Assembly (NCBI RefSeq): GCF_030758415.1 | Contig: NZ_CP132334.1 | Location: forward strand, 2,244,001-2,308,000 | Length of the DNA stretch: 64,000 bases | Origin: Parvularcula sp. IMCC14364 | GTDB lineage: Bacteria > Pseudomonadota > Alphaproteobacteria > Caulobacterales > Parvularculaceae | Direction: 5' to 3' | Shown: positions 495 through 26,229 of the stretch, piece by piece | Layout of the letters: each line of letters starts with the position of its first letter | How positions within the stretch are numbered: the first letter of the stretch is position 1 | Made by a program: the position numbers and the translations under genes | Notes under the pieces: model-generated | Told to the model about the DNA's origin: nothing | Database searches by the model: none | Seen by the model: only the letters and a program-made list of their open reading frames with translations

Positions 495-1373
495 TCAATC
501 TCGCCATTCTTCTGGCAGCCTGTCACCAAATCTGGACTGACAAAAATCATAAACTTCTGCATAATGATCGCGCAGTCGGCCAAAAGAGTTTTCATCAATG
601 GATTTGGTTTTAACTGAACGATTGATAACCTGATCAAAACTGGCTGGCTTAGCAGGCAACCCCAGAAATTTCTGAATGGCCGCGACAGTTTCAGAAGAAA
701 AAAGATTCTCATAAAAGCCGTAAAAGAGCATGTTTGCCGGGAACGCTTTTTCCAACTCAGTAATCGTTTTATCGTAACGCGTCCGTTCATAAAGCACACT
801 GGACTCGAAAGACTTCTCCAATTCTGCCCTGGCATCTTCAATCTTGCCTCTGGCCTGCTGATACTTAAGCTGTGACCAATGCCTGGAAGCAGGGTCACGC
901 ATTAGGAAGATTATCTTAAGTTTGATATCATGTGCGGAGAACAACGCTTCGACTTTCCGAAAATGATCCGCCTGCAGCATCATATAGGCAGGCGTGATCT
1001 CGCATAAATACTTTTGATCACTTCCGCACAGGCGGTCAAAATGATCGAGATACCCTTCCGGGCAATAGTCCATCCTTACTCGATCAATCAAGGCTTCCCT
1101 GTATGCTTTGATTCTCCTAAGACGCGATTTTCCCCCATGCACAGAGTGAGGCTTTGCCAACAGCGCCTCTGCAGTCGCCAGCTCAAAGTCACGGTTCCAG
1201 TCCCCTGACAGATGCGGCACATACCGCGTATCAAAATAATGAACTTCCTTGATTGGACTACAGGCAATTTCGTCATAGGTTCGCAGGAATTGAAACAGCC
1301 ATGATGTGCCGGCACGGGGCGCGCCGACCCCCATAATCATCGTCTTGCCGTTCAGCTTGGGATAACAGGACAT
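495..1373 (-). CDS. Sulfotransferase
   Basis: PAPS-dependent sulfotransferase of the carbohydrate (heparan-sulfate-like) type, 292 residues. The phosphosulfate loop GAPRAGTSWLFQFL is near the N-terminus and the 3'-phosphate motif IIFLMRDPASRHWSQLKYQ is mid-protein. I chose the ATG at 1373, four bases after the stop of the ABC ATPase gene. The frame can be extended to a TTG at 1424, but that adds a Lys-rich tail lying inside the ATPase gene. Its position directly behind the polysaccharide exporter genes suggests that it sulfates the exported glycan or a precursor. It is not closely similar to the partial sulfotransferase downstream, so the two may act at different positions. Confidence 0.85.
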   Translation of the reverse strand: MSCYPKLNGKTMIMGVGAPRAGTSWLFQFLRTYDEIACSPIKEVHYFDTRYVPHLSGDWNRDFELATAEALLAKPHSVHGGKSRLRRIKAYREALIDRVRMDYCPEGYLDHFDRLCGSDQKYLCEITPAYMMLQADHFRKVEALFSAHDIKLKIIFLMRDPASRHWSQLKYQQARGKIEDARAELEKSFESSVLYERTRYDKTITELEKAFPANMLFYGFYENLFSSETVAAIQKFLGLPAKPASFDQVINRSVKTKSIDENSFGRLRDHYAEVYDFCQSRFGDRLPEEWRD

Positions 1374-1377
1374 AAAG

Positions 1378-2151
1378 TCAGACTTCTTCTTTTCGATTGC
1401 GCGCGTCTTCTTCAAATCGTTCAAGTATGCTCGGATCCTGGCTGTATTCTTTCATCCCCCCCGCCTCAAGCCACAAAAAATGTGTACACAAATTTCTTAA
1501 TAAGGGAATACGATGGGAAGCGATAACAACAATGCCAGCACCTCCAACCATTGTTTTCATCCGCTCCTGTGCCTTATTTCTGAACTTGAGATCTCCAGCA
1601 CCAATCCACTCGTCCATCATCAGTATTTCCGGCTCAAAGGCTGTTGCTGTCGAGAATGCCAATCGCATAACCATACCGCGAGAATAAGTCCGCACAGGCA
1701 TGAACAGATATTCACCAAGGCCGCTGAACTCGGCGATGTCAGGCACGCGCTCCTCAGCTTCTGCTCTGGTCATACCCTGTATAAGCCCACTGAGTATGAT
1801 GTTCTGAATACCAGTTGCTTCCATTTTCATACCGATACCCACATTGAACAATGCAGATACTACCCCCTCAGAAGTCACCGACCCATGAGTAGGCGGCACA
1901 ATGCCGGCCATAACTTGCAACAAAGTGGTCTTGCCCGCACCATTATGACCGACAATACCAAGCCTGTCCCCGCCTGATAAAGAAAGAGAAATACCCTTAA
2001 GTGCCTCAACCCCCCCTTTTTTGCCACTGGCAAAGTTACCCCCAAGCGTACTGTCACTTTTGAGATTAAGCCTGTTAGCAACCACCGACTTGAAGCCGAG
2101 CGCTGGATAAATCAATGCCACATTATCAAGACAAACACTGGGCATCATCAT
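1378..2151 (-). CDS. Polysaccharide ABC exporter, ATP-binding subunit
   Basis: Nucleotide-binding subunit of an ABC-2 exporter of the KpsT/Wzt/TagH type, energising export of a lipid-linked polysaccharide across the inner membrane. Walker A is GHNGAGKTT (residues 69-77), the signature is YSRGMVMRLAFS, and Walker B is EILMMDEW. At 257 residues it lacks the extra C-terminal carbohydrate-binding domain found in Wzt proteins that recognise a capped chain end, so it resembles KpsT more. The ATG at 2151 overlaps the permease stop by four bases (ATGA), which implies translational coupling. Confidence 0.92.
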   Translation of the reverse strand: MMMPSVCLDNVALIYPALGFKSVVANRLNLKSDSTLGGNFASGKKGGVEALKGISLSLSGGDRLGIVGHNGAGKTTLLQVMAGIVPPTHGSVTSEGVVSALFNVGIGMKMEATGIQNIILSGLIQGMTRAEAEERVPDIAEFSGLGEYLFMPVRTYSRGMVMRLAFSTATAFEPEILMMDEWIGAGDLKFRNKAQERMKTMVGGAGIVVIASHRIPLLRNLCTHFLWLEAGGMKEYSQDPSILERFEEDARNRKEEV

Positions 2152-2978
2152 ATCCAGAAAATTATTTTACGGCGGCACAGCGCATAAAGGGTTACGCCCA
2201 ACGCCCAACCGACAACAGTTATGCAAAGGACAACAATCCAGCTCCCAACAGGTACTTCACCCCGCAGGATTGGTTCACGGAAGATCTCGAGATAGTGCGT
2301 AAAAGGGTTCCACCAAACATATTCTCCTAATCTACCCATAGAAGTAGGTACCCATAAGATGGGAGTCAGGAACAGCATGATGCGCATTACAGAACTTATG
2401 AAATGCTGCAAATCCCTGAATCGAGCGCAAATGCATCCCAAGAACAAATGCACCCATACTGCATTGATAATAAAAATCAGGAGTGCCGGAATCGTCCAGA
2501 ACATTACGGGGGTTATATCCACGCCCTGCCAGACCACAACGGCTGCAACAATAATAGAACTGAAGAAAAAAGTAACAAGGTTGCCAGTAATGCTCTGAAA
2601 TATAAAAACCGATATAGGTATTTTTGTCCCCTTGAGCCAATTGCTTGAGGACATGAAAATAACACATCCCTCACTTATTGAGCCAGTTATAAACTGCCAA
2701 ACAAGAAATCCAGAGCACAGAAATACGGCGAACGAAATATCCTGCACATTTGACAACCGCTCAAAAATAACAACCTTGACGAGAACGAACATACCAAATG
2801 AGAGAAATAGCCACGCAACGCCAAAAACGGTGCGCTGATACCTCTGCCTTAAATCTTCCTTGGACAAAGCCGTCCAGAGGCGCCACTGGAGAAGACCACT
2901 CCAGATGTCATCTCTCAGCACCTCCCAGAGAGGGTTGCTTTTCCGTGTAACAATTTCTGATGCGCTTGTCTCAGCCAC
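2148..2978 (-). CDS. Polysaccharide ABC exporter, permease subunit
   Basis: ABC-2 type permease (KpsM/Wzm/RfbA family), 276 residues. A hydrophilic N-terminus (residues 1-45) ending in LRQRYQRTVFGVAWLF, typical of the family, is followed by about six hydrophobic segments. These include VWQFITGSISEGCVIF, the WTIPALLIFIINAVWVHLFL region and a C-terminal SWIVVLCITVVGWALGVTLY helix. It forms the membrane channel with the ATPase encoded directly downstream (ATGA overlap). The gene starts 27 bases after the giant glycosyltransferase gene, so biosynthesis and export appear to be on one transcript. Confidence 0.92.
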   Translation of the reverse strand: MAETSASEIVTRKSNPLWEVLRDDIWSGLLQWRLWTALSKEDLRQRYQRTVFGVAWLFLSFGMFVLVKVVIFERLSNVQDISFAVFLCSGFLVWQFITGSISEGCVIFMSSSNWLKGTKIPISVFIFQSITGNLVTFFFSSIIVAAVVVWQGVDITPVMFWTIPALLIFIINAVWVHLFLGCICARFRDLQHFISSVMRIMLFLTPILWVPTSMGRLGEYVWWNPFTHYLEIFREPILRGEVPVGSWIVVLCITVVGWALGVTLYALCRRKIIFWI

Positions 2979-3005: not shown

Positions 3006-6000
3006 TCACCCAGCAAATGAGGCTGGCTTGATATTTCTGAAAACGATTGTTCGCCAACTTTGGCCGACAAGCGTCATATCAGGATGGCTTTTAACTTCTT
3101 CATCGACAAATTTTTTGACATCCGGCCATTCATCCGCACCATAATCATCAAAAATGATGTAGCCTCCCCGCTTCACCAGAGGGGCGTAATTCTCGAAGTC
3201 GAGTTTGATGCTGGTATAGGCATGATCCGCGTCAATAACGATGACATCATACCGATCATCTGATGCCTCACGTATGGCAGAGTCTTCATGACTGTACCGC
3301 TTGATCAAGGTGTAATCGTGGTCGGAAACATGCATGGCCTGCATATTCTGACGCAGGTTGCTTTCGCCAACCTTCAGACCCGTCAGGATATCCGAAGCAT
3401 CGTTACCATAATACCCGTCGAGAGGGTCGATCATGGTCAGCTTTACTGTATCAAACCTGTCCCGGCAATGATCATAAATGGCACCAGCACCGACACCAAA
3501 TAGCGTGCCTATCTCCAGAACACTCAAACTCCTGCCCCGCACGGAACCGGCGACGAGAGAGCGCAAAACCGCATCCTGAATATCCGTCGCCACCCTTCCC
3601 CTGGAAGAAGATTCAAGTTCGCATATTCTTTTGGCTGCATAATAGAGGTTCTTGTCTTCCAGTTTCAGCCCTAGAGAACCTGCCCATTTCTCCTTGATTT
3701 CGGCAACATCGCGCGGTGTCAACGCCCGGTCAAAAGAGTTGAAGTTAATATCATTCTGCGTGGCAACGTGACTGAAAGCATCAACTTTCTCAGTCAGCAC
3801 GTGGATATCAGCGCCCGTCTTTTCTAGTTCACCAACCTGAGTGACAAGGGATTGACGCCGTGATTTTTCCTCAGCCACTGTGAGATTGAGGTTCTCAATG
3901 TCCTTCGTAACATCCGCCTCCATCTGTGTTATCCGGTCAGATAGGTAGTCTGTTATTTCATCGAATGACGAGTTCTTGTTCAGGAGTTCATTAAGCTGCG
4001 CGCGTATCTCCCCTTCCAGTTGAGCAACATGGTCCTGACTGGATAAGTCTTCCATACGCCCCTGCAAGAGGCTGATTTTCTCAGCAACGTCAGCAACCTG
4101 CCTGCGCGACTCGGCCTGAAACTCAGAGATGCGATCCTGCTCAACAGAGTCAGATACTCTTTTCTCTAACGCCGCAAGCTCACCAGACATATTCTGCAAC
4201 TTTTGGGCGACATCATTTTCCAGTGTGCTTAGCTGATTGCCGTCGGATTTCTGCTCCAGTGAATTGCGCAACTTCTCTAGCGCCTGCTCAAGGCTTGCCT
4301 GCCTTTCAGACAGATCATTTGCAAACCTGTTTTCGATGTCAGACAGCTTGCTCTCAAGATCGGAAGTATCATTTCTGGCCTTGGCTGACAGGATGCTTTC
4401 CAGTTCAGAAACCAGCGCCATGCCTGCCTTCTGATCCAGCTCATTATAGACGTTGGCAACCTCATGACGGAAAGCCTCAATATCTTCGCTGCCCAGTTTG
4501 CTTTCGAGGCTATTGGCAATCTGAGCTGCTGTGTCGTCGAGAAATGTTTCGAAGTCAGTGATTTTACTTTCCTGCGCTATTTGTACCGCACGCAAACTTT
4601 CCTGCGCGACTTGCGCGGAATCCAGAAGTTCACGAAGTGACTGCAACTCAAGCGTCAACTGTGTTCTGGCAGAAGCATTCGCGGCTTCCAGTTTTCGCTG
4701 TTCACTGGCCAGCCGCTGCACGACAGGGGTCGGCGCACGCGCAGCAATCTCTGACCGGAGGGTGCTGGTCAGGTTCTGAAAGTGTTGGGTGATACGGCGC
4801 TTTGTGTAGAGAAAGCCAAAGGCAACCCCACCGGCAAAACCCGCAAGAACCAGTCCGGCAAGAACGAGCCAGGGCCAGGGCGTTGACCCAAGCGGCGTCA
4901 GGAACGCAAGGCCAAGCGTTAGCAGCAACGCACCACCATATAAAAGGAACAGCGGAAAACGCCGTTTGAGAATGTCTTTCGACAACCTCATTCCCTTGGC
5001 TATGATTGGACGAAATCTGGCAGGCAAAAACTGTAGTAACATCGTCCCGGGCGTTCTGGCTGCCGTTCGAGTTTCCCCTCTAGGTGATTTTGCCTCCCGA
5101 ACTGCAGCTGAAGACTGCACAGAAGAATCTGTACGGACGGTATTTTGAGCTGGCTTAGCGGGCGTCACCGCGGGCTGTTGGGAGACTGTGTCTGTCATCA
5201 TGCCGCGCTCTGCTGCCACGGAAGAAGCTTCACCATCCAGAATATCAAAAGCAGGAATAACCTCAACAACGCCCCCCTTCTCAACATCTTCAAACCGGCA
5301 GAAATCAAGCGCATCCACTTTGGAGTCGAGATTGGCATTCAGAATTTGTGCGCCCTGCTCCATCACGGGGCCTGCCACCTCACGCCACGCATCCAGATGA
5401 ATATTTCTGTTTGGATTGGGAATATTATACTTGTCGCCCTTGCGTTGATAACCCTTGAAAAAATAATTGGGATTTTCTTTTTCCTCAACGATTTCAAGTT
5501 CTGTCCCGACACCGACTTCCTTGGCACCGTCCACAACCTCTTTGTAATTACAATCAACACCAAGAACATAGATGTTCCGGTAGCCAAGCATAGCGGCGAA
5601 AGCTGCTGTATGGCTACCAGTAGTGATTGTCGGTGCCTGTAGGACGGCAGAGTAACGCTTTAACTCATCAAAATTCAGCACACGTTCCTGATTTTTGACA
5701 GCACCGATCTCCTCAATGAGGTTTTGCCGTAACATGAAGAGGCGAATGCCTGTCTTGTGAGATGTTTCAATCAGTCTTTTGATTTCAGCTTTGTGGCTCA
5801 ACCCGACGACGAGATCGAGACAGCAATAATACTGTGGGTACCAGTTAATTTCGTCCCAGTAGCGGTAGGCAGCGTTCATGCCGAAAACGTCAGTCACCTT
5901 GAACCGGTCAAAATCAAACCCGGCAAGAGAGGGTCCATTGCCCAAAACGACAGCAGGTTTGGTCGCAGGGGATCCAATAAATTTGAGACCTGTTGTGTTC

Positions 6001-7886
6001 AGAAACAGGCCCCTGTGTTGCATCATGGCAGCTGCACTGTTTCGATAAAATTCAGGTATCTCCGTAGACACCTGATAATCCTGATTATCACTACCAGACT
6101 TCCAGCGCGACTTTGAAGAGGCAGAAGACAGGTTGTCAGCGACACAAAATTCCTGTGCGGAGCGATATGGCGCCTTGTGCCGGGCTGCCAGTATGGAAAT
6201 GATCGCCTGATCATGGCGGTGACCAAAATAGCCAAAAAGTTCACGTATCTTTGAAGGCGACAGCGTTGCCTGCCAGGCCTTGTCCTCAACTGCCCGGTTG
6301 CGCTCATCTGACGTTCCGCCATCGCGGCGCTGGTAAACCGGCGGCTCGGGATGCTTGTCCCCGGCCAGAATTTCCGGCTGCAGAGAATAGTCAAAGGCTT
6401 CCTGAAAGAGGTTACTGTACCGCCCACCAACCTTGTACCCCAGAAAACCAGCCCGCAAATGCGGCGCCATCAATTCTTCTGCGCTCGCCTGCATACCCGC
6501 AACGCAAGCATCTGACGTGAATGTCGAGTTCCACACCGGCCAGATGCTCTTATCGCTATGATCAACCAAGAGAATATCGTGCTCTTCAATTTCCGAAAAG
6601 CAGGTCTGCATGTCAGACAGGGGATAGATACCAGCATCCATCCAGACGACATTATCCCCCGCTTCCAGATAATGCCGGGCATGCCAGATCGCGTAAGCCT
6701 TGAAACCATAAGTCTGTACAGAGAAATAATCTTCAAAGAACGGCGCAGCCTGCCTGTCAAAATCCAGCACAAACACATTTTCAAGCGAGTGAAGAATATC
6801 TCTTTGTGCCTGTGTGAGGCCAAGATCGTAGACAAAAGCCGGATATGGTTTTTCATGATACTTTTGCAGACCCGCAATCATGGTCAGGCCACTGGCAAAA
6901 AAACCCTCGTCAAATGAAGAAATATAGACGCGATTTGTGCTGATGAGATTTTGTGACCGCACATATTTCAGCGTCTCAAGTGAGTCCGGCAGATGCGCCA
7001 TGCTGAACAGGCTTGAAAGGCTTTGCTTGTCACCATTATACGCCATGAAAACTTCCTTACGCTTTCCTCCGAGGTTGGAGGAGGACTTCCAGTTATCTCT
7101 AACGATTCCATCAGAACCATCTGTCAGACACCGAGCCAGTTTATCGATCCACTGATAGCTGGCAAACCCGTAATAGTCTTTGCTGGTGCGGGTTGTCTGT
7201 TCGAGGGAGACCGCTCTATTCCCTATTGTTTTCGAATCCTGATGGAGTGTGGCCTGCGTAAACTTTCTGTCGACATGCACGAAAGTTTTACCCGCATGGA
7301 CCGCACGCAGCCAATATTCATAATCAAAACAGTAACTCAAATCTTCACGGCAGGGCCCGATATCCGTGAAAACTTCCCGTCTGAAAAAGTTGGCAGGCTG
7401 CAAGATACCGACTGAATTCATCAGGCGGCTGCGTAACATATCAGGTTCGGCGTTGATGTAGACATCCTGCAGATAAACACCGTGCTGGTCCAGAAACTCA
7501 CCGCCACCGTAAATGAAATCGGCTTCCGGGTGCTCATGAAAATACCGAGCAACGTCGCGCAAGACATTCTCGTCAATGAAGAAATCATCCGTATTCAACC
7601 AGGTTATGATGTCGCCTGTTGCTTGAGCGAAGCCACGATTGATGACATCCATCTGCCCTTTGTCCTTTTCGACCATGAGGTGAACCCACGGCTTACCCGC
7701 TGCATAAGAACGCAACTTATCGGCTGTCCCATCCGAGGAGACGCTATCCATGATAATGTGCTCGTGTGGCAACGAGCTTTGCGTCGCAACACTTTGCAAG
7801 CATTTATCAACGAACTCAGCCTGATTATAGCTGGGGGTGACGATCGAGATGGTGGGTAGTTTTGTCATAAATACACCATCCCTCAT
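3006..7886 (-). CDS. Multidomain glycosyltransferase/coiled-coil/methyltransferase
   Basis: A 1626-residue membrane protein with at least six parts. Residues about 10-280 are a family 2 glycosyltransferase (ISIVTPSYNQAEFVDKCL; WLNTDDFF as the DxD region). Residues 317-560 look like another GT-A-type transferase (NVVWMDAGIYPLSDM). Residues 645-850 resemble DUF115/Maf and GT42 sialyltransferases (VVLGNGPSLAGFDFDRF, then TTGSHTAAFAAMLGYRNIY). Residues about 979-1030 are two membrane segments. Residues 1032-1390 are a long heptad-rich coiled coil. Residues 1450-1620 are a class I SAM methyltransferase (VLEIGTLFGVGAGAIY; VIVIDADHAY; GGYIIFDDYG). The ATG at 7886 overlaps the upstream stop (ATGA); an ATG at 7868 is the alternative. 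It lies just before the ABC exporter genes. I infer a scaffold that builds and perhaps caps the chain before export; this is untested. Confidence 0.8.
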   Translation of the reverse strand: MRDGVFMTKLPTISIVTPSYNQAEFVDKCLQSVATQSSLPHEHIIMDSVSSDGTADKLRSYAAGKPWVHLMVEKDKGQMDVINRGFAQATGDIITWLNTDDFFIDENVLRDVARYFHEHPEADFIYGGGEFLDQHGVYLQDVYINAEPDMLRSRLMNSVGILQPANFFRREVFTDIGPCREDLSYCFDYEYWLRAVHAGKTFVHVDRKFTQATLHQDSKTIGNRAVSLEQTTRTSKDYYGFASYQWIDKLARCLTDGSDGIVRDNWKSSSNLGGKRKEVFMAYNGDKQSLSSLFSMAHLPDSLETLKYVRSQNLISTNRVYISSFDEGFFASGLTMIAGLQKYHEKPYPAFVYDLGLTQAQRDILHSLENVFVLDFDRQAAPFFEDYFSVQTYGFKAYAIWHARHYLEAGDNVVWMDAGIYPLSDMQTCFSEIEEHDILLVDHSDKSIWPVWNSTFTSDACVAGMQASAEELMAPHLRAGFLGYKVGGRYSNLFQEAFDYSLQPEILAGDKHPEPPVYQRRDGGTSDERNRAVEDKAWQATLSPSKIRELFGYFGHRHDQAIISILAARHKAPYRSAQEFCVADNLSSASSKSRWKSGSDNQDYQVSTEIPEFYRNSAAAMMQHRGLFLNTTGLKFIGSPATKPAVVLGNGPSLAGFDFDRFKVTDVFGMNAAYRYWDEINWYPQYYCCLDLVVGLSHKAEIKRLIETSHKTGIRLFMLRQNLIEEIGAVKNQERVLNFDELKRYSAVLQAPTITTGSHTAAFAAMLGYRNIYVLGVDCNYKEVVDGAKEVGVGTELEIVEEKENPNYFFKGYQRKGDKYNIPNPNRNIHLDAWREVAGPVMEQGAQILNANLDSKVDALDFCRFEDVEKGGVVEVIPAFDILDGEASSVAAERGMMTDTVSQQPAVTPAKPAQNTVRTDSSVQSSAAVREAKSPRGETRTAARTPGTMLLQFLPARFRPIIAKGMRLSKDILKRRFPLFLLYGGALLLTLGLAFLTPLGSTPWPWLVLAGLVLAGFAGGVAFGFLYTKRRITQHFQNLTSTLRSEIAARAPTPVVQRLASEQRKLEAANASARTQLTLELQSLRELLDSAQVAQESLRAVQIAQESKITDFETFLDDTAAQIANSLESKLGSEDIEAFRHEVANVYNELDQKAGMALVSELESILSAKARNDTSDLESKLSDIENRFANDLSERQASLEQALEKLRNSLEQKSDGNQLSTLENDVAQKLQNMSGELAALEKRVSDSVEQDRISEFQAESRRQVADVAEKISLLQGRMEDLSSQDHVAQLEGEIRAQLNELLNKNSSFDEITDYLSDRITQMEADVTKDIENLNLTVAEEKSRRQSLVTQVGELEKTGADIHVLTEKVDAFSHVATQNDINFNSFDRALTPRDVAEIKEKWAGSLGLKLEDKNLYYAAKRICELESSSRGRVATDIQDAVLRSLVAGSVRGRSLSVLEIGTLFGVGAGAIYDHCRDRFDTVKLTMIDPLDGYYGNDASDILTGLKVGESNLRQNMQAMHVSDHDYTLIKRYSHEDSAIREASDDRYDVIVIDADHAYTSIKLDFENYAPLVKRGGYIIFDDYGADEWPDVKKFVDEEVKSHPDMTLVGQSWRTIVFRNIKPASFAG

Positions 7887-8545
7887 GAAACCCGCCGGGC
7901 GGCATAGATCAGGCAGACATTCTGTGCCTGCATGCGCAATTCGGCCATATTGGGGCTGGCTTTATACAACTCGAACAGGGCCGCGTCCGACGTCGACGCC
8001 ATGTCTGGCTGAAAGAGAGGCTCGGGGCCCATTACATTACCCACCGGCTCAACCCCGCCGCGCTGAAAAGACTGATGAAATGCAGCAAAACGGTCCAGCC
8101 AGAATGGTGTGGGCGTCGGTGCGATATAAAATTGCAGGGCATGGATCATCACACCGCCCGGCCGCAACATATCCCGGCACACATCAAGTGCCTCGGCAAT
8201 TTCTGAACTGCCAAACTTCTCGAACTCACCGCAAGAAAACAGCAGATCAAAAGCGATCTCGGCCCCAGATACCCGTTCATCCCCGCTCTTTGAGCCAGAA
8301 TATACTGAAACTTTCTCGATTTTCGTTTGCTGCATTTGAAGCGAGTAGGTTTCATTGTGGCGGATCAAACCATCCAGCAGGGATTTTTCACCCGGATTTA
8401 TTTCCGCAACACTTGCCATTTCGATACCACTCAGGAAATCCTGCACGGCTATCTGCTGGTAAAAGCTCATATTGAGACCTGCCGGAGACAACCCAGTCTG
8501 TTCCGCTGCGCGGAATGACTCATATTTTCTCACAAAATCAAGCAT
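7883..8545 (-). CDS. SAM methyltransferase-like protein
   Basis: A 220-residue cytoplasmic protein with the pattern of a divergent class I SAM-dependent methyltransferase. ASVAEINPGEKSLLDGL would be a degenerate cofactor-binding loop. FDLLFSCGEFEKFGSSEIAE followed by CRDMLRPGGVMIHA matches the usual strand-4 and post-strand-5 pattern ending in LxPGG. The canonical GxGxG loop is missing, so activity is uncertain. It overlaps the next gene by four bases (ATGA), which couples it to the giant glycosyltransferase. It may methylate the glycan or a sugar intermediate, or may only retain the fold. Confidence 0.6.
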   Translation of the reverse strand: MLDFVRKYESFRAAEQTGLSPAGLNMSFYQQIAVQDFLSGIEMASVAEINPGEKSLLDGLIRHNETYSLQMQQTKIEKVSVYSGSKSGDERVSGAEIAFDLLFSCGEFEKFGSSEIAEALDVCRDMLRPGGVMIHALQFYIAPTPTPFWLDRFAAFHQSFQRGGVEPVGNVMGPEPLFQPDMASTSDAALFELYKASPNMAELRMQAQNVCLIYAARRVS

Positions 8546-11373: not shown

Positions 11374-12285
11374 TTAGACTGACTGTTTGAAAGATGCTGC
11401 AGGCAGCATCAAGGGGCGATCAAAGTCGAGTTGGAATAATCCGCCTGAAAGCGGTGCCTTATCAATCTTTGTCGCGCTCAATCCCGCCCTTGCCGAGGTA
11501 ACAAAAGCTGTTTTTCCTTCGGCACCGCCAAAGACAATACTTGTTGGCTGTGGTACTGGCATTTCGATTGTCGCCACCGTTTCAGCGCTTTTCGGGTCGA
11601 GGCGGCAAATCTTGCTGCCTGCCCAGAATGCAACCCACAGGCCGCCTTCCCGGTCTACTGTCATACCGTCCGGATAGCCGAAGCCAGGCTCAAACTGCCT
11701 GAACAGGCGCTTGTTGGCAAAGCCTTCTAGCGTCAGGTCAGCTGCAAAAATCCGCTGATATTTTGAATCTGTGAAATACACACGCGAAAGGCTGGCATCA
11801 AAAGCTGGCCCGTTTGTGACCCCAAAACCACCTGCCAGTTGATGACAGGCCAGTTTTTCATCCAGCAGCCACCAATTCCCTGTATCCTCCTGCTCCGCAT
11901 CATCCATGGTCCCCGCCCAGAAACGCCCCAAGGGATCACATTTGCCATCATTGAAGCGGTTGCCAGGTAATTTTTTTTCCGGATCATGGATTGGCGCGAT
12001 GGAGACTTCCGGCTTGCCGTCTTCCACATCAAGCCAGGCAAAGCCTGTGCGTGTTGCGGCCACAAAACGCGCCCCTTCAGCTTTAGCAAAGCTGCCAATC
12101 ATCTCTGGAGAGGACCAGGATTTTTTTTCTGCCGTTTTGGTGTCATAGCGGTGCAGTTGCTTGCCCTTTATGTCCGTCCACCAGACCGCCTGCAGCGCGT
12201 GATCCCAGACAGGCCCTTCACCGAGAAGTGCCTCGGCAGGCCAAACACATGATAGGTTTTCAAGAGTTACGGCTTTCACACTCAT
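11374..12285 (-). CDS. SMP-30/gluconolactonase family lactonase
   Basis: Six-bladed beta-propeller hydrolase of the SMP-30/LRE family, 303 residues, which opens sugar lactones using a divalent metal. GEGPVWD near residue 22 supplies the metal-binding Glu. PGNRFNDGKCDPLGRFWAGTM and YFTDS blocks follow, as does YPDGMTVDREGGLWVAFW with its conserved Asp. It overlaps the upstream SDR gene by four bases (ATGA). A lactonase beside two dehydrogenases suggests a route in which a sugar is oxidised to a lactone or acid. The substrate is unknown. Confidence 0.85.
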   Translation of the reverse strand: MSVKAVTLENLSCVWPAEALLGEGPVWDHALQAVWWTDIKGKQLHRYDTKTAEKKSWSSPEMIGSFAKAEGARFVAATRTGFAWLDVEDGKPEVSIAPIHDPEKKLPGNRFNDGKCDPLGRFWAGTMDDAEQEDTGNWWLLDEKLACHQLAGGFGVTNGPAFDASLSRVYFTDSKYQRIFAADLTLEGFANKRLFRQFEPGFGYPDGMTVDREGGLWVAFWAGSKICRLDPKSAETVATIEMPVPQPTSIVFGGAEGKTAFVTSARAGLSATKIDKAPLSGGLFQLDFDRPLMLPAASFKQSV

Positions 12286-13034
12286 GCCGGGTCATGCAGT
12301 CTGGAGAGAACACCACCATCCGCATACAGGGTCTCACCGTGAATGAAAGCAGCCTTGCCGGAAACGAGGAAAACGGCGATTTCTGCCACTTCCCGCGTTG
12401 AGGCAATACGACGCAAGGGATGGGCTTCAGCCAAAGCCTGCAAGGCTTCAGGATTATCCTTGAAGCCTGCTTTCAGCATCGGCGTGTCTGTCGCTGCAGG
12501 CGCAAGGCCGCAGATACGAACCCGGTTCCCAAGATCCACAGCCATGGAACGCGTCAAGCCATGCAAGGCTGTCTTTGTGGTGGCATAAGCGACGAACCCT
12601 TGCTTTGTTGATTGAGCGTGCACCGAGCCGATGTTGAGAACAGTGCCCGCCACAGCCTTTTCAAGATCAGGCAACAAGGACTGGACAAGTCGAAAAGGCG
12701 CCAGCGTATTCACCTTGAATGATTGCAAAAAGTCATTTGCAGACAGATCATCAACCCCGCCAAGAACCTGAAGGGCACCGTTGTTCACAAGGGCATGCAA
12801 CGGCGCACCCGACAGTAAGGTCTGCACATCAGTAACGAGACTCGCCAGAGCCACATCTTCTACCGCAATCTTTTCCAGATCATGCTGAACAAAGCTGAAA
12901 TGATCCGACGGAAAGTCCGGTTCGCGCTGGTCCGTGCCAATAACGCGCCATCCCTTTTCCGCGAAGACCTCTGCCATCTTGTGACCAATACCACCGCATA
13001 CACCGGTGATGAGAATGTTTTTTGGCTCAGACAT
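12282..13034 (-). CDS. Short-chain dehydrogenase/reductase
   Basis: Classical SDR oxidoreductase, 250 residues. The N-terminal NAD(P)-binding motif is TGVCGGIG, then ALVNNGALQ, then a catalytic Ser-Tyr-Lys set with YATTKTALHG as the YxxxK. Asp in IGTDQRE after strand 2 suggests a preference for NAD. The ATG at 13034 overlaps the end of the upstream dehydrogenase gene by 8 bases; a longer TTG start at 13055 would add seven poor residues. It lies between the 2-hydroxyacid dehydrogenase and lactonase genes, so all three probably act on one sugar or sugar acid. Confidence 0.88.
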   Translation of the reverse strand: MSEPKNILITGVCGGIGHKMAEVFAEKGWRVIGTDQREPDFPSDHFSFVQHDLEKIAVEDVALASLVTDVQTLLSGAPLHALVNNGALQVLGGVDDLSANDFLQSFKVNTLAPFRLVQSLLPDLEKAVAGTVLNIGSVHAQSTKQGFVAYATTKTALHGLTRSMAVDLGNRVRICGLAPAATDTPMLKAGFKDNPEALQALAEAHPLRRIASTREVAEIAVFLVSGKAAFIHGETLYADGGVLSRLHDPA

Positions 13035-13962
13035 GTTTTTTAAGGAAATCCTCAATCATATCAATCGTCAGTAAACTGACGTGACGGCTGGCATCTACGG
13101 TATTGGAGCCACTATGGGAACCAAAGATGCACTGATCAAAATCCCTGAGGCGAGAGTTTGCCGGTAATGGCTCCACCTCAAATACATCCAGCGCTGCAGA
13201 AGCTACGATACCTGCCTCCAGCCCTTCGACCAGTGCGGCCTCTTCGATGACGGGCCCTCGGCCGACATTGATAACCCTGACGCCCGGTTTCAACTGAGGC
13301 AGAATACCGCGATTGAACATATGCCGCGTGTATTCGTTCAGGGGACAGGTAAAGATCAGGAAATCTAGCTCGTTCAGACCTTCCGGCCAGGGCAGATGCT
13401 CGACATCTACAAAATCCGCTGACTTGAAGTATGGATCATACGCCACGATCTCCATGTCGAGCGCTGCAAGCCTCTTGCAGGACTGACGCCCGATATCGCC
13501 GAAGCCGACCACGCCTGCCCGCTTGTTCCAGGTAGAAATACCCCCCGGTTTCAGCCACTGGTTCTCGGTCCGGATTTTTCGGTCCATCACGAACAGGTTG
13601 CGCGCGAGGCCAATCGTATAGGCGATAGCAACATCGGCCACTTCCCTGCCGAAAACACCGGGCGTATTCGAGACGGGAATGCCAAGCTCCTCACAGGCGT
13701 CAAAGTCTACATTGTCGATGCCAACACCCCATTTGACAGCAGCCTTGAGCTTGCCGCTCTTGCCGGCTTCGAACACACGCCGCGTCGCCGGGTCATCTCC
13801 GATGATCCAGCCATCAAAGTCTGGCAGCATCTTTATCAGCTCGTCCTCGCTCAATGTCTGAACAACAGTGGCAGCAACGCCTTCAAGCCCCTTTTCTGCA
13901 AAGACAGGGTAAAACTCATCCATCAGGTTGAGCATATTGGGACAGGTAACCAGTACACGCAT
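13027..13962 (-). CDS. D-2-hydroxyacid dehydrogenase
   Basis: NAD-dependent 2-hydroxyacid dehydrogenase related to phosphoglycerate dehydrogenase, 311 residues. It has the nucleotide-binding VVGFGDIGRQ, the catalytic Arg in INVGRGPVIEE, Glu in DVFEVEPLP and His in FGSHSGSNT. KWGVGIDNVDFDACEELGIP is typical of the substrate domain. There is no C-terminal ACT domain, so it is not a feedback-regulated serine-pathway enzyme. Its neighbours (CMP-sugar synthetase-like gene 9 bases upstream, SDR overlapping downstream) point to an acidic-sugar pathway instead. Confidence 0.88.
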   Translation of the reverse strand: MRVLVTCPNMLNLMDEFYPVFAEKGLEGVAATVVQTLSEDELIKMLPDFDGWIIGDDPATRRVFEAGKSGKLKAAVKWGVGIDNVDFDACEELGIPVSNTPGVFGREVADVAIAYTIGLARNLFVMDRKIRTENQWLKPGGISTWNKRAGVVGFGDIGRQSCKRLAALDMEIVAYDPYFKSADFVDVEHLPWPEGLNELDFLIFTCPLNEYTRHMFNRGILPQLKPGVRVINVGRGPVIEEAALVEGLEAGIVASAALDVFEVEPLPANSRLRDFDQCIFGSHSGSNTVDASRHVSLLTIDMIEDFLKKHV

Positions 13963-13971
13963 TTTCCTCGC

Positions 13972-14691
13972 CTACTCCCCGGGCAACAAGGTGCCTGAAG
14001 CGACACGCATCAATAGTGACTCAGCCATGAACCAGTCAGATGGCTCATCAATATCCACTGACTCAAGGTCAGGTGTAACATACATCACGGGGGCTTCACC
14101 GATACGCGCACCCGTTCTGGCAAAGCTGCTTTCGGTAAAAAGGTAGCCCACTGAATTTTCTTCCATATAGGGCGGCAAGTCCTGTGTCCGGATCAGGTTA
14201 GCCGGATCATGATTTATCGGCTCCCCCTCTGGCGTGTAGAATCTTGTCTGGTGTCTGTTCACTGTGAACAGGCTATCGGCGCTGCCGTCGTTCTTTGCTC
14301 CCTCAAAGGTGGAAAGCATGGCCTGGATCGTTTTGGGCGACAGCAAAGGGTTGGTTGTGTGGGTCATGAAATAATAATCTGATGGCTGATTTTTTATATC
14401 ATCCTCAAGTACCAAATTCATGGAGACAAAATCACCACATAATTCAGGTTTGCGATCGCGTATCAGAACACGTCCCGCGCCATCACCATCTCGAAGGCCG
14501 TTGTCCGCCAGTATTTCCCGGGCATCTGTATTGATAACAACCCGGTCAATCGCCTCGACCGACAACAGCGTATCGAGAATCCAGCGGAAAAGAGGCTTGC
14601 CCGCAATATCACGAAAGTTTTTGGAGGTAACGCGCGCGCTATGCGCTTTCATGGGCAAGAGGGCCGTCAGTGTCTTGTTATTGAACGTCAT
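13972..14691 (-). CDS. CMP-sugar synthetase-like cytidylyltransferase
   Basis: Nucleotidyltransferase of the acylneuraminate/Kdo cytidylyltransferase family, 239 residues. The N-terminal LTALLPMKAHSARVTSKNF corresponds to the family loop that binds CTP. GKPLFRWILDTLLSV, VVINTDAREI and YYFMTHTTNPLLSP follow, and SVDIDEPSDWFMAE is the usual late metal-binding segment. It should activate an acidic sugar as a CMP conjugate. No sialic, pseudaminic or legionaminic acid synthase (NeuB type) or Kdo synthase is present here, so the sugar is either made elsewhere or is unusual. The neighbouring dehydrogenases and lactonase are candidates for its synthesis. Confidence 0.82.
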   Translation of the reverse strand: MTFNNKTLTALLPMKAHSARVTSKNFRDIAGKPLFRWILDTLLSVEAIDRVVINTDAREILADNGLRDGDGAGRVLIRDRKPELCGDFVSMNLVLEDDIKNQPSDYYFMTHTTNPLLSPKTIQAMLSTFEGAKNDGSADSLFTVNRHQTRFYTPEGEPINHDPANLIRTQDLPPYMEENSVGYLFTESSFARTGARIGEAPVMYVTPDLESVDIDEPSDWFMAESLLMRVASGTLLPGE

Positions 14692-14735
14692 AAAAGCTCG
14701 GAGGAATGATTGTGAAAATCGCTTATAAGCAAGGC

Positions 14736-15722
14736 TTATCGCTGGTTATAGGCTTCGCTGTCGAGCCCTGAAGCGTCTTTTTCGTCTGCTTCCTGTTTTT
14801 GCAATGCCTTGTCTTGCGCCGGATAATAGTAGCGTTCCTTTTGCGCCCGTGACAGCTTACGATGCTCGTTATGCCCTTTGTAAGTGCCCCAGTACTGGGC
14901 AAACCGAAAGGCGACAATCTCCGATATGCGCGAAAAAGTCCTGCCTTCTGAAAATGCTGCCCTCATGTCCAGAGCGGTCCCGACCGTAAAATAGCGCACA
15001 AAATCCAGTAAAGAGAAATGCACCTCCGGCATGATGTCTCTCAGCACCAGCGCTTCGCGATAATACCGGTTCTGCGTTTGCTTTTGTGATTCTTCATGCA
15101 CATGGGTGACGGGCGCTGAAGCCACATAGGCAATTTTATGGCCAAGTTGCTGAAGCTGTTTGGCCAGGACCATGTCTTCAAGGCCGGTCACTTCTTCATC
15201 GAACGGGTATTGTTCCCAAACCTCACGCAGGATTGCAGCGTTCGCATTATTGCAGAAAAACCCCTCCTGCGGGATCGCATCGCCTTCGGGAAAGTACTTA
15301 TTGAACAAACGATGCTCGGAGAATTTTGTGACCTCATCATGCCCGACCTGCCGACCATAAGTGTAGGATGCCTTGCCAGCAACAAGCGGCTGAACCAATT
15401 CCTGAAGCCAACGATCGTGAGTCGGGATGCAATGTGCTGAAATAAAAACCAGATACTGCCCCCGTGCAAAGGCGCAGCCACGGTTCAGGGAGCGCCCGAA
15501 CGAAAACTCACTTTTTGAAATATGCGTGATACGGCAGTCATGGCACTCTGCGATCTCAATCGTTCTGTCCGTCGAGCCGGAATCGATGAGCACAATCTCG
15601 AAATCCAGACCATCAAGCCTCTGCTGCCGACAGGCCGCCAGCGCCTGATCGAACCACTTTTCCTCGTTCAAGGCACGAAAAACGATACTGATTTCGGGCG
15701 TTGTCACTAAACGGCCTTTCAT
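14736..15722 (-). CDS. Family 2 glycosyltransferase
   Basis: GT-A fold glycosyltransferase, 328 residues, cytoplasmic. It has ISIVFRALNEEKWFDQAL, the IVLIDSGSTDRT nucleotide-binding segment, GRSLNRGCAFARG, and YLVFISAHCIP in place of the usual DxD strand. A later TGLEDMVLAKQL holds the ED catalytic-base motif. The ATG at 15722 fits the normal family N-terminus; a TTG at 15785 would add 21 residues without family features. It is the first gene of the minus-strand polysaccharide run and is divergent from gmd across 236 bases. Confidence 0.85.
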   Translation of the reverse strand: MKGRLVTTPEISIVFRALNEEKWFDQALAACRQQRLDGLDFEIVLIDSGSTDRTIEIAECHDCRITHISKSEFSFGRSLNRGCAFARGQYLVFISAHCIPTHDRWLQELVQPLVAGKASYTYGRQVGHDEVTKFSEHRLFNKYFPEGDAIPQEGFFCNNANAAILREVWEQYPFDEEVTGLEDMVLAKQLQQLGHKIAYVASAPVTHVHEESQKQTQNRYYREALVLRDIMPEVHFSLLDFVRYFTVGTALDMRAAFSEGRTFSRISEIVAFRFAQYWGTYKGHNEHRKLSRAQKERYYYPAQDKALQKQEADEKDASGLDSEAYNQR

Positions 15723-15958
15723 GGGTGCGGCAATATTCAAATCACATATCCCGCACCTCTGTGAAAGTACATAACTCCCGACCAAAGACCAAGGCCAGAT
15801 CAGGATGAGCGAAGCGCAGCCAATGATACTGGTGAAGCGGATCGACTGAATATATCAGGATTAGCAATTGCCAGCCATGGTCTCATTCGTTAGAGGGGCG
15901 AGGGTGAATTGGGCGATTTTCTAGCCCTTGTAGATTTATGGATCAGCCAGGAAAAATG

Positions 15959-21481: not shown

Positions 21482-24346
21482 CTAGATCGCTATATCGTCT
21501 TCCAAAGCAGCAATTGTGATATTGCGCAAAGTAAGCACATCAAGACCATCAGTGAAGATAACATCGCCTCCAAGCTCAATCATCTGCGCCGTTGCATCAT
21601 TCACGGATCCAAAGCCAAACGATGACAAATCCAGTGTGTCTTCATCATCCTTGAAATCAGTCACTTCTGTTTGCTCGTGACCTGACCCGAAAATAAATGT
21701 GTCGAATCCGGACTTGCCCGTCAGGACATCGTTGCCAGCACCACCAGACAGAATATCATCACCGCGGCGAGCATCAATTATATCATCACCAGAACCACCA
21801 AACATCTGGTCGTTGCCGGCACCACCAACAATCAGATCATCGCCCTCTTCGCCATGGATAACGTCATTGCCGCCATTGCCACGTAACTCATCATTACCAA
21901 GACCACCGAAAATTGTGTCCGTCAGACCCCGGCCTGAAACGAAATCATTTCCGTCACCCGCAAAGATGTCATCACTGCCACGCCGACCAGAGATATTGTC
22001 ATCACCGGCGCCACCGAAAATTCTGTCGCCGGAGTCACCCCCAATGATCTCATCATTACCATCGCCGCCGTCGAGGATGTCCTTGTCGCCACCGCCGGAG
22101 ATGATGTCGTCACCATCATTGCCGAAGATTGTGTCCTGCCCACCATTGCCGGTAAGGTCATCATTCTGGCCACCGCCACTAATTATATCAGCCCCGGCAC
22201 CACCAACGATGATATCCGCACCAGCATCACCATTCAACGTGTCCTGACCATTGCCGCCGTCAATGGTATCCTGACCGTCGCCACCAGAAATGATGTCATC
22301 ACCTGACCCGCCTGTAAGCTGATCAAAATCGTCACCGCCAAAAATACGGTCGTTACCATCTCCGCCGTCAATAATATCATCACCGCCACCGGTGGCATCA
22401 AAGTCGAAATAATCGAAGAAAAACGAATAGGGAGATGAACCACCCAATTCATTCTCGATAGAGATATTCAGGTCATACGTATCGCCGACATTGATTTCAG
22501 ACAGATTCGGAAAAGTGCCGACAACAATAAAATACGCCCCGGCGGCTCCAGGGACAAACTCAATGTATGAATCGAGTGCACGGCCCTGAAACTCTGACTC
22601 GCTTCCACCAGCCCCGTCCGCCGGATTGGAATCATCGTTGAAAGCAAGAAAATTACCAGTGCTGTCTGTAATGCCAATAAACGAATCCATGTCCCCGGAA
22701 GTGTTGTCAATGTCTGCAACAATACGCGCATAAGGATTATTGATTTGAACTCGGTAGATGTCGAGTTGACCGTTACCTGTACCCTGAACCTTCACATGCG
22801 GTATGGTAGTCGCATCCTCAATATCAGCGTCTGCGGACAAACTGAATGCACTGCTGATATCAATGGCTGAATTGAGCGTATCATTAGACGTTTCTTGCCC
22901 TGCAACCAACACACCGGACCCGAGGGAAATGCCACCGCCAATCGTTGGATCAATTTCCTGCAGCGCTGAGAGACCGTCAAAGTCCCCAATCAGAATATCA
23001 TCGCCAGCACCACCGTTGATCGTATCTGCGCCCAACCGACCGACCACGGCATCAGAACCACTACCAGCATTCAAGACATTGTCTGCATCATTCCCATCCA
23101 GCAAATCGTTACCGCCACCAGTTGTGCCATTCTCAATGATTGCGTTGCGCGCAATAGTCATGCCGCCTGTAACGCCCTCAACAAAGCTGATCAGCCCGCC
23201 ACCTGTTGCTGTTGCATCGATCGTTGCCTCACCGAGGAACACATATGCATTCTTAGAGCCGGCATAGGATATTTCATCAGTACCATCCGCATCCCAGATC
23301 GCAGAATAGAATGTACCAGATCCATTGCTGTCACTCAGGACATAAGTATCATTGCCCGTGCGGGTGGTCATGTCTGCGCCATAAATTTCCTGTATAGCAG
23401 CGATATCCAGAGCCATCGGTGTGCCCTGCCAGCCAAAACCATCCTCGGTTGAACCGCCGCCCAATAACTCCCACCCGTCATTATACGACATGGTTGTGTA
23501 GACACCCTGGTTGATTTTGCCCGTCCCAAAATCACTTTCAGCGCCAACGCCTGGAAAAAGATCCTGATCGTGACCATGCTCAAGACCAAGGCCATGGCCA
23601 ATCTCGTGGATCAATGTGATGAAGCCATACCCACCCTGCATAAGGCCTGCAGCATCCCAACCACGACCATCGTGGTTGTATTGTCCAGGGGAGCCAAACG
23701 GCGGGAGGACAATGCCGTCAGTTGTTGTCGTGGTGTTGCTGCTTGTATTCGGGAAGAAATGAAAACCGAGTGCACCGTCAGCATCGGTTACACTTTCGAT
23801 AAGGTTAGCCCCAGATTCATTGGCCACTTCTTGCAGCTGAATATCCGCCACATCATCCCACAACGCCATTGCCAGACGCATGGCATCACCGGCACCATCT
23901 TCATCCCAGTCATTGACGTTGTTCTGATCAAAGTCAGAGAATTTGAGATGATAAGTTATAGGGCTGGAATTGTCCCAAGCCGAATCGCCAACCAGCGCCT
24001 GAAGAACAGTTGAAAGCGAGCCATCGCTGAAACCTGACGCCGTCGTCTTTGCTTGAGGGCCGTCCGCCGTGCCGGAAGCATCGACAGGAAAATCATCAAA
24101 ACTTTCACTGAAAGTTGTCCCTGGAGCTACTTCAACAAGGTCCGTCGCCAATTGTATGCCACAACAGCCGCAGCCGCCCTTGCCGTCCATCTCATATTTG
24201 TTGGCATGATTGTAGTTCAGCCGGCTCAGCAAGCTGTCAACGTTAAGACCCGCTGCTGCCAGGCTGCTGCCAAACGTTTCTACTGAAAAACTGCTGGTTA
24301 TTACAGCTTCATCAGACAGTGACTGACGATCAAAAAAACCTGACAT
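21482..24346 (-). CDS. Serralysin-like RTX metalloprotease
   Basis: Secreted zinc protease of the serralysin (M10B) type, 954 residues. The zinc site LIHEIGHGLGLEHGHD is near residue 245, followed by a Met-turn (YTTMSYNDGW) and a first short RTX block (about 410-450). An inserted domain like bacterial pre-peptidase C-terminal domains follows (about 520-620, with YFIVVGTFP), then a long RTX block of GGxGxDxLx repeats (about 650-880). The end (DTFIFGSGHEQTEVTDF onwards) resembles a type I secretion signal. There is no Sec signal peptide. An unusual Cys cluster (residues 59, 61, 62) lies in the N-terminal region. No type I secretion genes are in the window. Confidence 0.88.
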   Translation of the reverse strand: MSGFFDRQSLSDEAVITSSFSVETFGSSLAAAGLNVDSLLSRLNYNHANKYEMDGKGGCGCCGIQLATDLVEVAPGTTFSESFDDFPVDASGTADGPQAKTTASGFSDGSLSTVLQALVGDSAWDNSSPITYHLKFSDFDQNNVNDWDEDGAGDAMRLAMALWDDVADIQLQEVANESGANLIESVTDADGALGFHFFPNTSSNTTTTTDGIVLPPFGSPGQYNHDGRGWDAAGLMQGGYGFITLIHEIGHGLGLEHGHDQDLFPGVGAESDFGTGKINQGVYTTMSYNDGWELLGGGSTEDGFGWQGTPMALDIAAIQEIYGADMTTRTGNDTYVLSDSNGSGTFYSAIWDADGTDEISYAGSKNAYVFLGEATIDATATGGGLISFVEGVTGGMTIARNAIIENGTTGGGNDLLDGNDADNVLNAGSGSDAVVGRLGADTINGGAGDDILIGDFDGLSALQEIDPTIGGGISLGSGVLVAGQETSNDTLNSAIDISSAFSLSADADIEDATTIPHVKVQGTGNGQLDIYRVQINNPYARIVADIDNTSGDMDSFIGITDSTGNFLAFNDDSNPADGAGGSESEFQGRALDSYIEFVPGAAGAYFIVVGTFPNLSEINVGDTYDLNISIENELGGSSPYSFFFDYFDFDATGGGDDIIDGGDGNDRIFGGDDFDQLTGGSGDDIISGGDGQDTIDGGNGQDTLNGDAGADIIVGGAGADIISGGGQNDDLTGNGGQDTIFGNDGDDIISGGGDKDILDGGDGNDEIIGGDSGDRIFGGAGDDNISGRRGSDDIFAGDGNDFVSGRGLTDTIFGGLGNDELRGNGGNDVIHGEEGDDLIVGGAGNDQMFGGSGDDIIDARRGDDILSGGAGNDVLTGKSGFDTFIFGSGHEQTEVTDFKDDEDTLDLSSFGFGSVNDATAQMIELGGDVIFTDGLDVLTLRNITIAALEDDIAI

Positions 24347-25973: not shown

Positions 25974-26229
25974 ATCCATACTCCAAAATGGTGATCGTTG
26001 TTCTCCATCTGGCAAGGATCATGCCATAGATTAAGAGTCAGGTAACCTTTTTTCCGAATCAAAACAGGGCTGAGGGTATTCAGCACAACCATTGCCTGCA
26101 AAATACGGGGCAAGCCAGCGCATATAGTGTTTTTTGCCGCTCTTTCAGATGCTTAATGGTATGAAAATACCCGTATGATTACTTAATATCGGACCTAGTG
26201 ACGCAGTTTTGGAAAAGTTTAGAGAGCAC

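What the first reader, a model, noticed from the sequence alone, without database searches (positions are those of the whole stretch)
3006..7886. Six-part glycan-assembly protein beside an ABC exporter
Two glycosyltransferase-type domains, a GT42/Maf-like domain, a membrane hairpin, a coiled coil of about 350 residues and a C-terminal methyltransferase are in one chain, encoded directly before the exporter genes. In the O9a O-antigen system WbdD uses a coiled coil as a ruler between a chain-capping methyltransferase/kinase and the polymerase. This protein could join polymerase, ruler and cap in one chain. Against this, the ATPase lacks the Wzt domain that reads the cap, and there is no kinase domain.
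Basis: partly seen in the sequence, partly recalled or inferred. Interest (0 to 1): 0.78.

Follow-up and report, generated by a model that had tools for sequence, protein, structure and literature searches.

The report
Glycan builder with built-in cap arm
One bacterial protein carries glycan-building domains, a membrane anchor, a long coiled-coil arm and, at the arm's tip, a sugar-methylating enzyme that probably caps the growing chain; relatives carry the same kind of arm with other caps, which makes a proposed ruler for surface-sugar length testable.

Summary
ORF 3006-7886 (-), 1626 aa, has six parts: GT2; a GT8/DUF1647-like domain; a GT42/DUF115-like domain; a two-helix membrane hairpin; a 354-residue coiled coil; a C-terminal MeT1/MycE-type sugar O-methyltransferase. 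A Wzm/Wzt-type exporter follows directly. The hairpin-coil-enzyme end is a mobile module: 18 proteins found, 14 with a GT-type domain in the same chain, 4 stand-alone; coils of 62-354 residues, the window's longest. An exporter ATPase lies nearby in 15 of 16 loci long enough to judge. Two relatives with 82-93% identical synthetic regions end in a methyltransferase and a sulfotransferase; two others share the sulfotransferase (69%) on unrelated synthetic regions. Best reading: polymerase, ruler and cap in one chain. That format is reported for Klebsiella O12 WbbB and nearly for O7, in the opposite order, so this is a new variant of a known kind. Unusually, neither this exporter nor the genome shows the Wzt cap-reading domain, which 11 of 15 module-linked ATPases do. 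Ruler and cap are inferred, not shown; two of the three GT-type domains lack an expected catalytic residue.

The parts
3006..7886 (-). 1626-aa six-part glycan-assembly protein, whole ORF
7101..7862 (-). GT2 glycosyltransferase domain (aa 9-262)
   Evidence: Pfam PF00535 E 5e-20; own HMM
6087..6986 (-). DUF1647/GT8-like domain (aa 301-600); reads DAG where glycogenin has DAD; conserved GHRxDQ
   Evidence: DAD of glycogenin is recalled
5274..6044 (-). GT42 (CstII)/DUF115-like domain (aa 615-871)
   Evidence: profile E 2e-8 to CstII; Foldseek CstII; alignment A3
4812..4952 (-). two-helix membrane hairpin (aa 979-1025), both ends predicted cytoplasmic
3750..4811 (-). coiled-coil arm, 354 aa (aa 1026-1379)
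3027..3749 (-). C-terminal sugar O-methyltransferase (aa 1380-1620), MeT1/MycE/TylF type, with its own conserved N-terminal stretch
2148..2978 (-). ABC-2 exporter permease (Wzm-like)
   Evidence: Pfam PF01061 E 5e-16; NCBIfam galactan exporter permease below cut-off
1378..2151 (-). ABC exporter ATPase (Wzt-like), 257 aa, without Wzt_C domain
495..1424 (-). stand-alone sulfotransferase, 309 aa
   Evidence: Pfam PF00685 E 2e-11
7883..8545 (-). 220-aa methyltransferase-like protein (Pfam matches below cut-off), ATGA overlap with the big gene; homologues in L027, L061, L066
13972..14691 (-). CMP-sugar synthetase (PseF/KdsB-like); possible donor route for the GT42-like domain
   Evidence: Pfam PF02348 E 8e-17; PseF-like below cut-off
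13027..13962 (-). 2-hydroxyacid dehydrogenase, conserved beside the CMP-sugar synthetase
12282..13055 (-). SDR oxidoreductase, often beside the CMP-sugar synthetase in relatives
14736..15785 (-). GT2 glycosyltransferase, often beside the CMP-sugar synthetase in relatives

Best explanation
The protein is an all-in-one assembly machine for an ABC-exported surface glycan. The N-terminal GT2, GT8-like and GT42-like domains work at the cytoplasmic membrane face and extend a lipid-linked glycan. The hairpin anchors them with both ends in the cytoplasm. The coiled coil holds the methyltransferase at a set distance from the synthetic domains. When the non-reducing end of the chain has grown far enough to reach it, the enzyme O-methylates the terminal sugar and growth stops. 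The neighbouring exporter then moves the chain out. Shown by computation: the domains, the module, its mobility, the exporter context and the lack of a Wzt_C match. Inferred: glycosyl transfer by each domain, methyl capping, the ruler effect, and the order of events.
For: Domain content and coil. Methyltransferase of a class that acts on sugars: top Foldseek hits are MeT1, with CalS11, MycE and MycF among the 50 listed; MeT1 blocks the 1-OH of a mannoside precursor of a polysaccharide (PMC9883506 passages), though that is the reducing end, not the end proposed here. Module hairpin-coil-methyltransferase in 18 proteins. ABC ATPase in 15 of 16 loci of 15 kb or more, the window included, while the own genome has 4 ABC-2 permeases above cut-off in 3.4 Mb. 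Wzt_C hit in 11 of those 15 ATPases, linking the module to capped-glycan exporters. Natural cap swap L033/L035: synthetic region 82-93% identical, terminal enzymes unrelated, ATPase 76% identical over 190 residues and 66% over an overlapping 228; reverse swap L035/L038: sulfotransferase 69%, synthetic region 21-26%. Precedents O9a, O12, O7 (PMC11231755; PMC3482155).
Against: No Wzt_C in the window's ATPase and no match in its genome, whereas the paper states that all its terminated O-antigen examples have such a module. The GT8-like domain reads DAG where a DxD is expected. The GT42-like domain has Tyr at the position aligned with the CstII catalytic His (alignment; role of His188 recalled). 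The full chain could not be modelled; coil pLDDT is mostly below 50 and the GT model is poor. The coil periodicity is mixed, 3.45 and 3.8. One module-bearing locus, L028, shows no exporter in 21 kb. Nothing shows that the glycan is a repeating polymer or that the methyl group is terminal.
Confidence: 0.55

Rival explanations
1. Decorative cap on a tether. The methyltransferase caps some or all chains, but length is set by coupling of synthesis to the reader-less exporter, as in Klebsiella O2a/O1. The coil only keeps the enzyme near its substrate.
For: The exporter groups with ATPases that lack Wzt_C. In O1 a terminal pyruvate is not needed for length control and the exporter lacks the module; O2a length follows transporter stoichiometry (PMC11231755 passages). 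L033 and L035 have closely related ATPases but different caps.
Against: An extended coil is described as a marker of the termination strategy with a ruler; a short flexible linker would serve a tether. 11 of 15 module-linked ATPases have a Wzt_C hit.
Confidence: 0.27
2. Fixed-length assembly line. The GT domains each add one sugar to make a defined, non-repeating oligosaccharide, which the methyltransferase finishes; no ruler is needed.
For: Relatives carry large mixed sets of GT2, GT4-like, DUF115 and FkbM domains in one chain. The GT42-like domain and the CMP-sugar genes are shared by loci with otherwise different synthetic regions, as expected of a conserved linker sugar.
Against: A coil of up to 354 residues would be out of proportion for an oligosaccharide of a few sugars (inference).
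Confidence: 0.1
3. Internal decoration. The methyltransferase or, in relatives, the sulfotransferase modifies repeat units along the chain rather than the end.
For: Sugar O-methyltransferases among the listed folds act on small glycosides or nucleotide sugars (MycE, MycF, CalS11; their roles from entry titles).
Against: Position at the far end of a long membrane-anchored arm, and coupling to Wzt_C exporters in relatives, fit an end-specific enzyme better.
Confidence: 0.08

Closest known systems
WbbB of K. pneumoniae/Raoultella O12
   Same: Polymerase GTs, coiled-coil ruler and terminator in one polypeptide, ABC-exported glycan (PMC11231755)
   Different: Terminator is an N-terminal Kdo transferase and the GTs are C-terminal, and its exporter has the cap-reading module; here GTs are N-terminal, a methyltransferase is C-terminal, a membrane hairpin lies between, and Wzt_C is absent
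ORF6 of K. pneumoniae O7
   Same: Methyltransferase-bearing terminator, coil and GT2 modules in one chain
   Different: N-terminal methyltransferase plus kinase, opposite order; closest fold of its methyltransferase is CgnL there, MeT1 here; its export machinery is said to take only terminated glycans. One of its polymerase GTs is a separate protein
WbdD of E. coli O9a/O8
   Same: Coil-borne cap enzyme attached to the membrane beside an ABC exporter; O8 form is methyltransferase only
   Different: WbdD is separate from the polymerase, attached by an amphipathic helix, with the enzyme N-terminal; none of the 28 PDB sequences in the profile search up to E 10 is named WbdD, nor are the 50 folds listed
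K. pneumoniae O1/O2a system
   Same: Exporter ATPase without cap-reading module; a cap may still be added (O1 pyruvate)
   Different: In the passages I saw, length there follows transporter stoichiometry, with no coil-borne terminator; here the cap enzyme is on a 354-residue coil
MeT1 of Mycobacterium hassiacum
   Same: Closest fold to the C-terminal domain; methylates a sugar at the end of a glycan precursor
   Different: Recombinant stand-alone enzyme acting on the 1-OH, the reducing end (that C1 is the reducing end is general knowledge); no coil or anchor is mentioned in the passages seen

Membership tests
Coil-borne chain terminator of ABC-exported glycans (WbdD/WbbB kind, functional class) | Cap enzyme at the far end of an extended coiled coil | tested here: met
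   An enzyme of fitting kind sits there; that it caps is not tested
Coil-borne chain terminator of ABC-exported glycans (WbdD/WbbB kind, functional class) | Membrane association on the other side of the coil | tested here: met
   Hairpin predicted; Lys/Arg counts before/within/after the hairpin over 20 proteins 76/16/41
Coil-borne chain terminator of ABC-exported glycans (WbdD/WbbB kind, functional class) | ABC (Wzm/Wzt) exporter in the same cluster | tested here: met
   15 of 16 module loci incl. the window
Coil-borne chain terminator of ABC-exported glycans (WbdD/WbbB kind, functional class) | Exporter ATPase carries a cap-reading (Wzt_C) module | tested here: not met
   257-aa ATPase, no Wzt_C; no match in genome. 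Hit in 11 of 15 module-linked ATPases, only 3 of those 11 above Pfam's cut-off
Coil-borne chain terminator of ABC-exported glycans (WbdD/WbbB kind, functional class) | Coil length sets glycan length | not testable with these tools
   needs mutants and glycan gels
WbdD family proper | Sequence relation of the methyltransferase to WbdD | tested here: inconclusive
   None of 28 PDB sequences up to E 10 is named WbdD and none of the 50 folds listed; I did not check that WbdD is in those copies, nor compare the two directly
GT42 (CstII-like) sialyltransferase | GNGPSL and TxG sequence regions shared with CstII | tested here: met
   GxGPSL invariant in 10 of 10 aligned sequences, its Asn in 9 of 10; TTG in 10 of 10; profile E 2e-8. 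CMP-binding role is recalled
GT42 (CstII-like) sialyltransferase | Catalytic His (His188 of CstII, recalled) | tested here: not met
   Aligned position is Tyr; alignment there is uncertain
TylF/MycE/MeT1-type metal-dependent sugar O-methyltransferase | SAM-binding ExGxxxG and paired acidic metal-site motifs | tested here: met
   Invariant in 7 of 7; folds; Pfam TylF and CmcI matches to the window's protein are below cut-off; metal role of the acids is recalled
Group 2 capsule export (KpsC/KpsS dependent) | KpsC/KpsS (PF05159) in the genome | tested here: not met
   0 matches in own genome; E. coli control rang

The most novel reading that the evidence does not exclude
These bacteria use exchangeable anchor-coil-cap cassettes: one cassette can be spliced onto unrelated glycan polymerases, and one polymerase can receive a methyl or a sulfate cap. 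In the branch that includes the window the exporter has lost, or never had, the cap reader, so the ruler and cap fix chain length without a checkpoint at export. That would be a third mode between the O9a mode (ruler, cap and reader) and the O2a mode (no ruler, no reader).
Probability: 0.35. Interest if true: 0.72.

Novelty: new variant of a known kind. Interest (0 to 1): 0.55.

Why it matters
The paper read here names two systems in which a coil ruler for chain length is established, E. coli O9/K. pneumoniae O3 and K. pneumoniae O12 (PMC11231755). This family offers a natural series of coils (62 to 354 residues) and a natural cap exchange on a closely similar synthetic region, so the ruler idea and the need for a cap reader can be tested separately. 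The window's protein has the longest coil of the 18 and no reader, which puts it between the two described modes.

Tried and rejected
Considered and dropped:
- Ruler doubtful because no kinase is present: dropped, since O8 WbdD is a plain methyltransferase.
- Group 2 capsule: no KpsC/KpsS match in the genome. Seven Wzy_C/ligase-type places are present.
- Frameshift or assembly fusion: a homologue with the same order exists in L027 (47% identity over 1143 alignment columns).
- A clean link between the methyl cap and Wzt_C: not found. Window, L027, L033 and L072 have the methyltransferase without a Wzt_C hit.
- Tandem-repeat growth of the coil: the two short arrays found lie outside the coil.
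- Plasmid carriage: none of 293 plasmid records has a place covering 80% of the query; the 15 listed match only within residues 1-319, mostly the GT2 domain. The methyltransferase alone hits 2 records weakly.

Rows left out of counts:
- L067 (from G215, one of the 16 genomes) has a weaker methyltransferase-like stretch near its N-terminus, no hairpin and no coil, so it is not among the 18. It has no exporter hit; with it the exporter count is 15 of 17.
- L068 and L069 are contigs under 7 kb and were left out of the exporter count; the L069 protein runs off its contig.
- Two hairpin helices pass the threshold in 14 of 18; L028, L041, L061 and L072 show one. In one search a second helix of mean hydropathy 1.5 or more is found in 17 of 18, L041 being the exception (0.26). 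L066 has four hydrophobic stretches, so its coil could be counted as 212 or 303 residues.
- In one search hairpin ends were set by eye for L028, L040, L041, L061 and L072. Two of 18 coils had shuffles as strong (L028 3 of 60, L040 1 of 60).
- Sulfotransferase calls: L035 is above the Pfam cut-off; L028 and L038 are below it, L038 being 69% identical to L035.

Led nowhere: the model of the GT8-like/GT42-like part was poor (pLDDT 53). The survey of terminators most likely to overlap (Mann 2019, Glycobiology; seen only as a reference) is not held, so it may already list related loci. Searches for prior description of this module listed no paper whose title or abstract start describes it, but I opened only three papers and most subscription papers are not in that library.

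Papers: PMC11231755, outline, abstract, passages and part 1 of the Discussion; PMC3482155, passages; PMC9883506, passages; others, search listings only.

Full report
What is there. The ORF at 3006-7886 on the minus strand encodes 1626 residues without interruption. It overlaps the upstream 220-aa gene by ATGA and is followed after 27 nt by an ABC-2 permease and then an ATPase. The genome is a single 3.4-Mb contig. A 90%-identical partial copy lies in a MAG named Aquisalinus, so the host is probably of that genus or near it.

Domains. Pfam finds GT2 and Methyltransf_24 above cut-off, and DUF1647 and CST-I below it. A profile of ten sequences of the third domain hits CstII sialyltransferases at E 2e-8, and the fold search agrees (E 3e-4). 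The second domain resembles glycogenin/GT8 only weakly (E ~0.01, prob ~0.98, on a poor model). Two cautions apply. The second domain reads DAG where a DxD would be expected, and the third has Tyr where CstII has its catalytic His (role of that His recalled). Their activity is therefore not certain.

The arm. Two hydrophobic helices at 979-997 and 1007-1025 are followed by 354 residues with strong helical periodicity: z 6.8, 0 of 60 shuffles as strong, against -0.7 to 1.9 for the four folded domains and 0.1 for the linker. The periodicity is mixed, with peaks near 3.45 and 3.8. AlphaFold with three sequences predicts helix nearly throughout but with low confidence, and a confident methyltransferase apart from a weak stretch of about 20 residues. 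Over 20 proteins (18 with the methyltransferase, 2 with a sulfotransferase) Lys/Arg counts before, within and after the hairpin are 76, 16 and 41, so both ends are probably cytoplasmic.

The methyltransferase. The closest fold is MeT1, with CalS11, MycE and MycF among the 50 listed of 259 matches at E 0.001 or better. MeT1 blocks the 1-OH of a mannoside precursor of a polysaccharide (PMC9883506 passages); that is the reducing end, so MeT1 supports action on glycans but not the end proposed here. The SAM motif and the DxDH and DDY acids are invariant in 7 of 7 aligned sequences.

Relatives. A homologue with the same six parts in the same order is in L027 (1454 aa, 47% identical), next to the same exporter type and the same CMP-sugar genes. 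In L028 the parts are split over two genes: GT2, GT8-like, GT42-like, hairpin, a short coil-like stretch and a weakly recognised sulfotransferase in the first; hairpin, a 62-residue coil and the methyltransferase in the second. Both are MAGs whose names (Pseudomonadaceae, Aggregatilineales) may be wrong. A profile of the methyltransferase found it in 16 of 299 genomes of the order and in 2 of 398 drawn from the phylum, at E 1e-15 or better, the window's genome counted in both. The DNA around the 12 hits not already in hand was fetched.

The module. Across everything fetched, 18 proteins have hairpin, coil and methyltransferase in that order; the second hairpin helix is unconvincing in L041. 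Fourteen have a GT-type domain in the same chain; four (in L028, L040, L041, L068) are stand-alone, like WbdD. Coil lengths run from 62 to 354 residues. The ABC ATPase lies in 15 of 16 module loci of 15 kb or more, L028 being the miss; the search that found the module did not use the exporter, and the own genome has only 4 ABC-2 permeases above cut-off. Wzt_C is hit in 11 of those 15 ATPases, 3 of them above the curated cut-off. The window, L027, L033 and L072 show none, and the window's genome has no match.

Natural cap swap. L033 and L035, from the same unnamed genus, have synthetic regions 82-93% identical, 61% just before the hairpin, 49% in the hairpin and proximal coil, 26-30% in the distal coil, and unrelated terminal enzymes: the methyltransferase in L033 and a sulfotransferase in L035. 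Neither ATPase has a Wzt_C hit; they are 76% identical over the 190 residues compared and 66% over an overlapping 228, and the permeases 66%. Conversely, L035 and L038 share the sulfotransferase at 69% while their synthetic regions are 21-26% identical. L036 has yet another, barely recognised domain (Methyltransf_25 E 0.13) on a related arm. The arm with its enzyme therefore behaves as a cassette. Since closely similar synthetic regions and related exporters occur with two different caps, I infer that this exporter type does not read the cap. Among the 16 best matches of the window's ATPase in the fetched loci (itself the first), seven short ATPases of this kind are 41-49% identical to it and eight Wzt_C ATPases 33-39%.

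Donor. The GT42-like domain occurs, alone or fused, in many of these loci together with a CMP-sugar synthetase, a 2-hydroxyacid dehydrogenase, an SDR and a second GT2, not always all four. This fits a CMP-sugar donor. Because the set is shared by loci with different synthetic regions, the domain may add a conserved linker sugar rather than part of a repeat. That is inference.

Known systems. In O9a the coil of WbdD separates cap enzyme and polymerase; O8 uses a methyltransferase only; O12 WbbB puts polymerase, ruler and terminator in one chain; O7 ORF6 nearly does; and the paper says all its terminated examples have the cap reader on the exporter ATPase, while O1/O2a exporters lack it (PMC11231755: outline, abstract, passages and part 1 of the Discussion; PMC3482155: passages). 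What differs here is the order (GTs first, enzyme last), the transmembrane hairpin, the different methyltransferase, the missing reader, and the evidence that caps are exchanged. The survey most likely to overlap (Mann et al. 2019) could not be read.

Verdict. Observation confirmed; interpretation partly supported; new variant of a known kind. Mechanism confidence 0.55.

Noticed in passing
L033 10361-16369 (+) and L035 11836-17724 (-): Giant proteins (2003 and 1963 aa) 82-93% identical over their first 1500 residues but ending in a methyltransferase and a sulfotransferase respectively: a natural cap swap.
   Followed up: yes
window 11374-15785: Gluconolactonase, SDR, 2-hydroxyacid dehydrogenase, CMP-sugar synthetase and GT2 in a row; the last four recur in many relatives beside GT42-like domains. 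Looks like a route to an unidentified CMP-activated sugar; no NeuB-type match in the row.
   Followed up: partly
window 7883-8545: Methyltransferase-like 220-aa protein overlapping the big gene by ATGA, with homologues in L027, L061 and L066; role unknown.
   Followed up: no
window 21482-24346, 24489-26015, 59825-63916: Three large proteins rich in RTX calcium-binding repeats, the first with a weak metallopeptidase match.
   Followed up: no
window 34848-36845: TPR repeats fused to a sulfotransferase domain, a second sulfotransferase gene in the window.
   Followed up: no
L028 15524-19693 (-): 1389-aa mosaic with GT2 and DUF115-like stretches and, by reading only, methyltransferase-like parts and a hydrophobic tail; another giant mosaic on the contig labelled Aggregatilineales.
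   Followed up: no
L072 6025-6960 (-): Stand-alone sulfotransferase 61% identical to the coil-borne one of L035, next to a module-bearing protein that ends in the methyltransferase.
   Followed up: no
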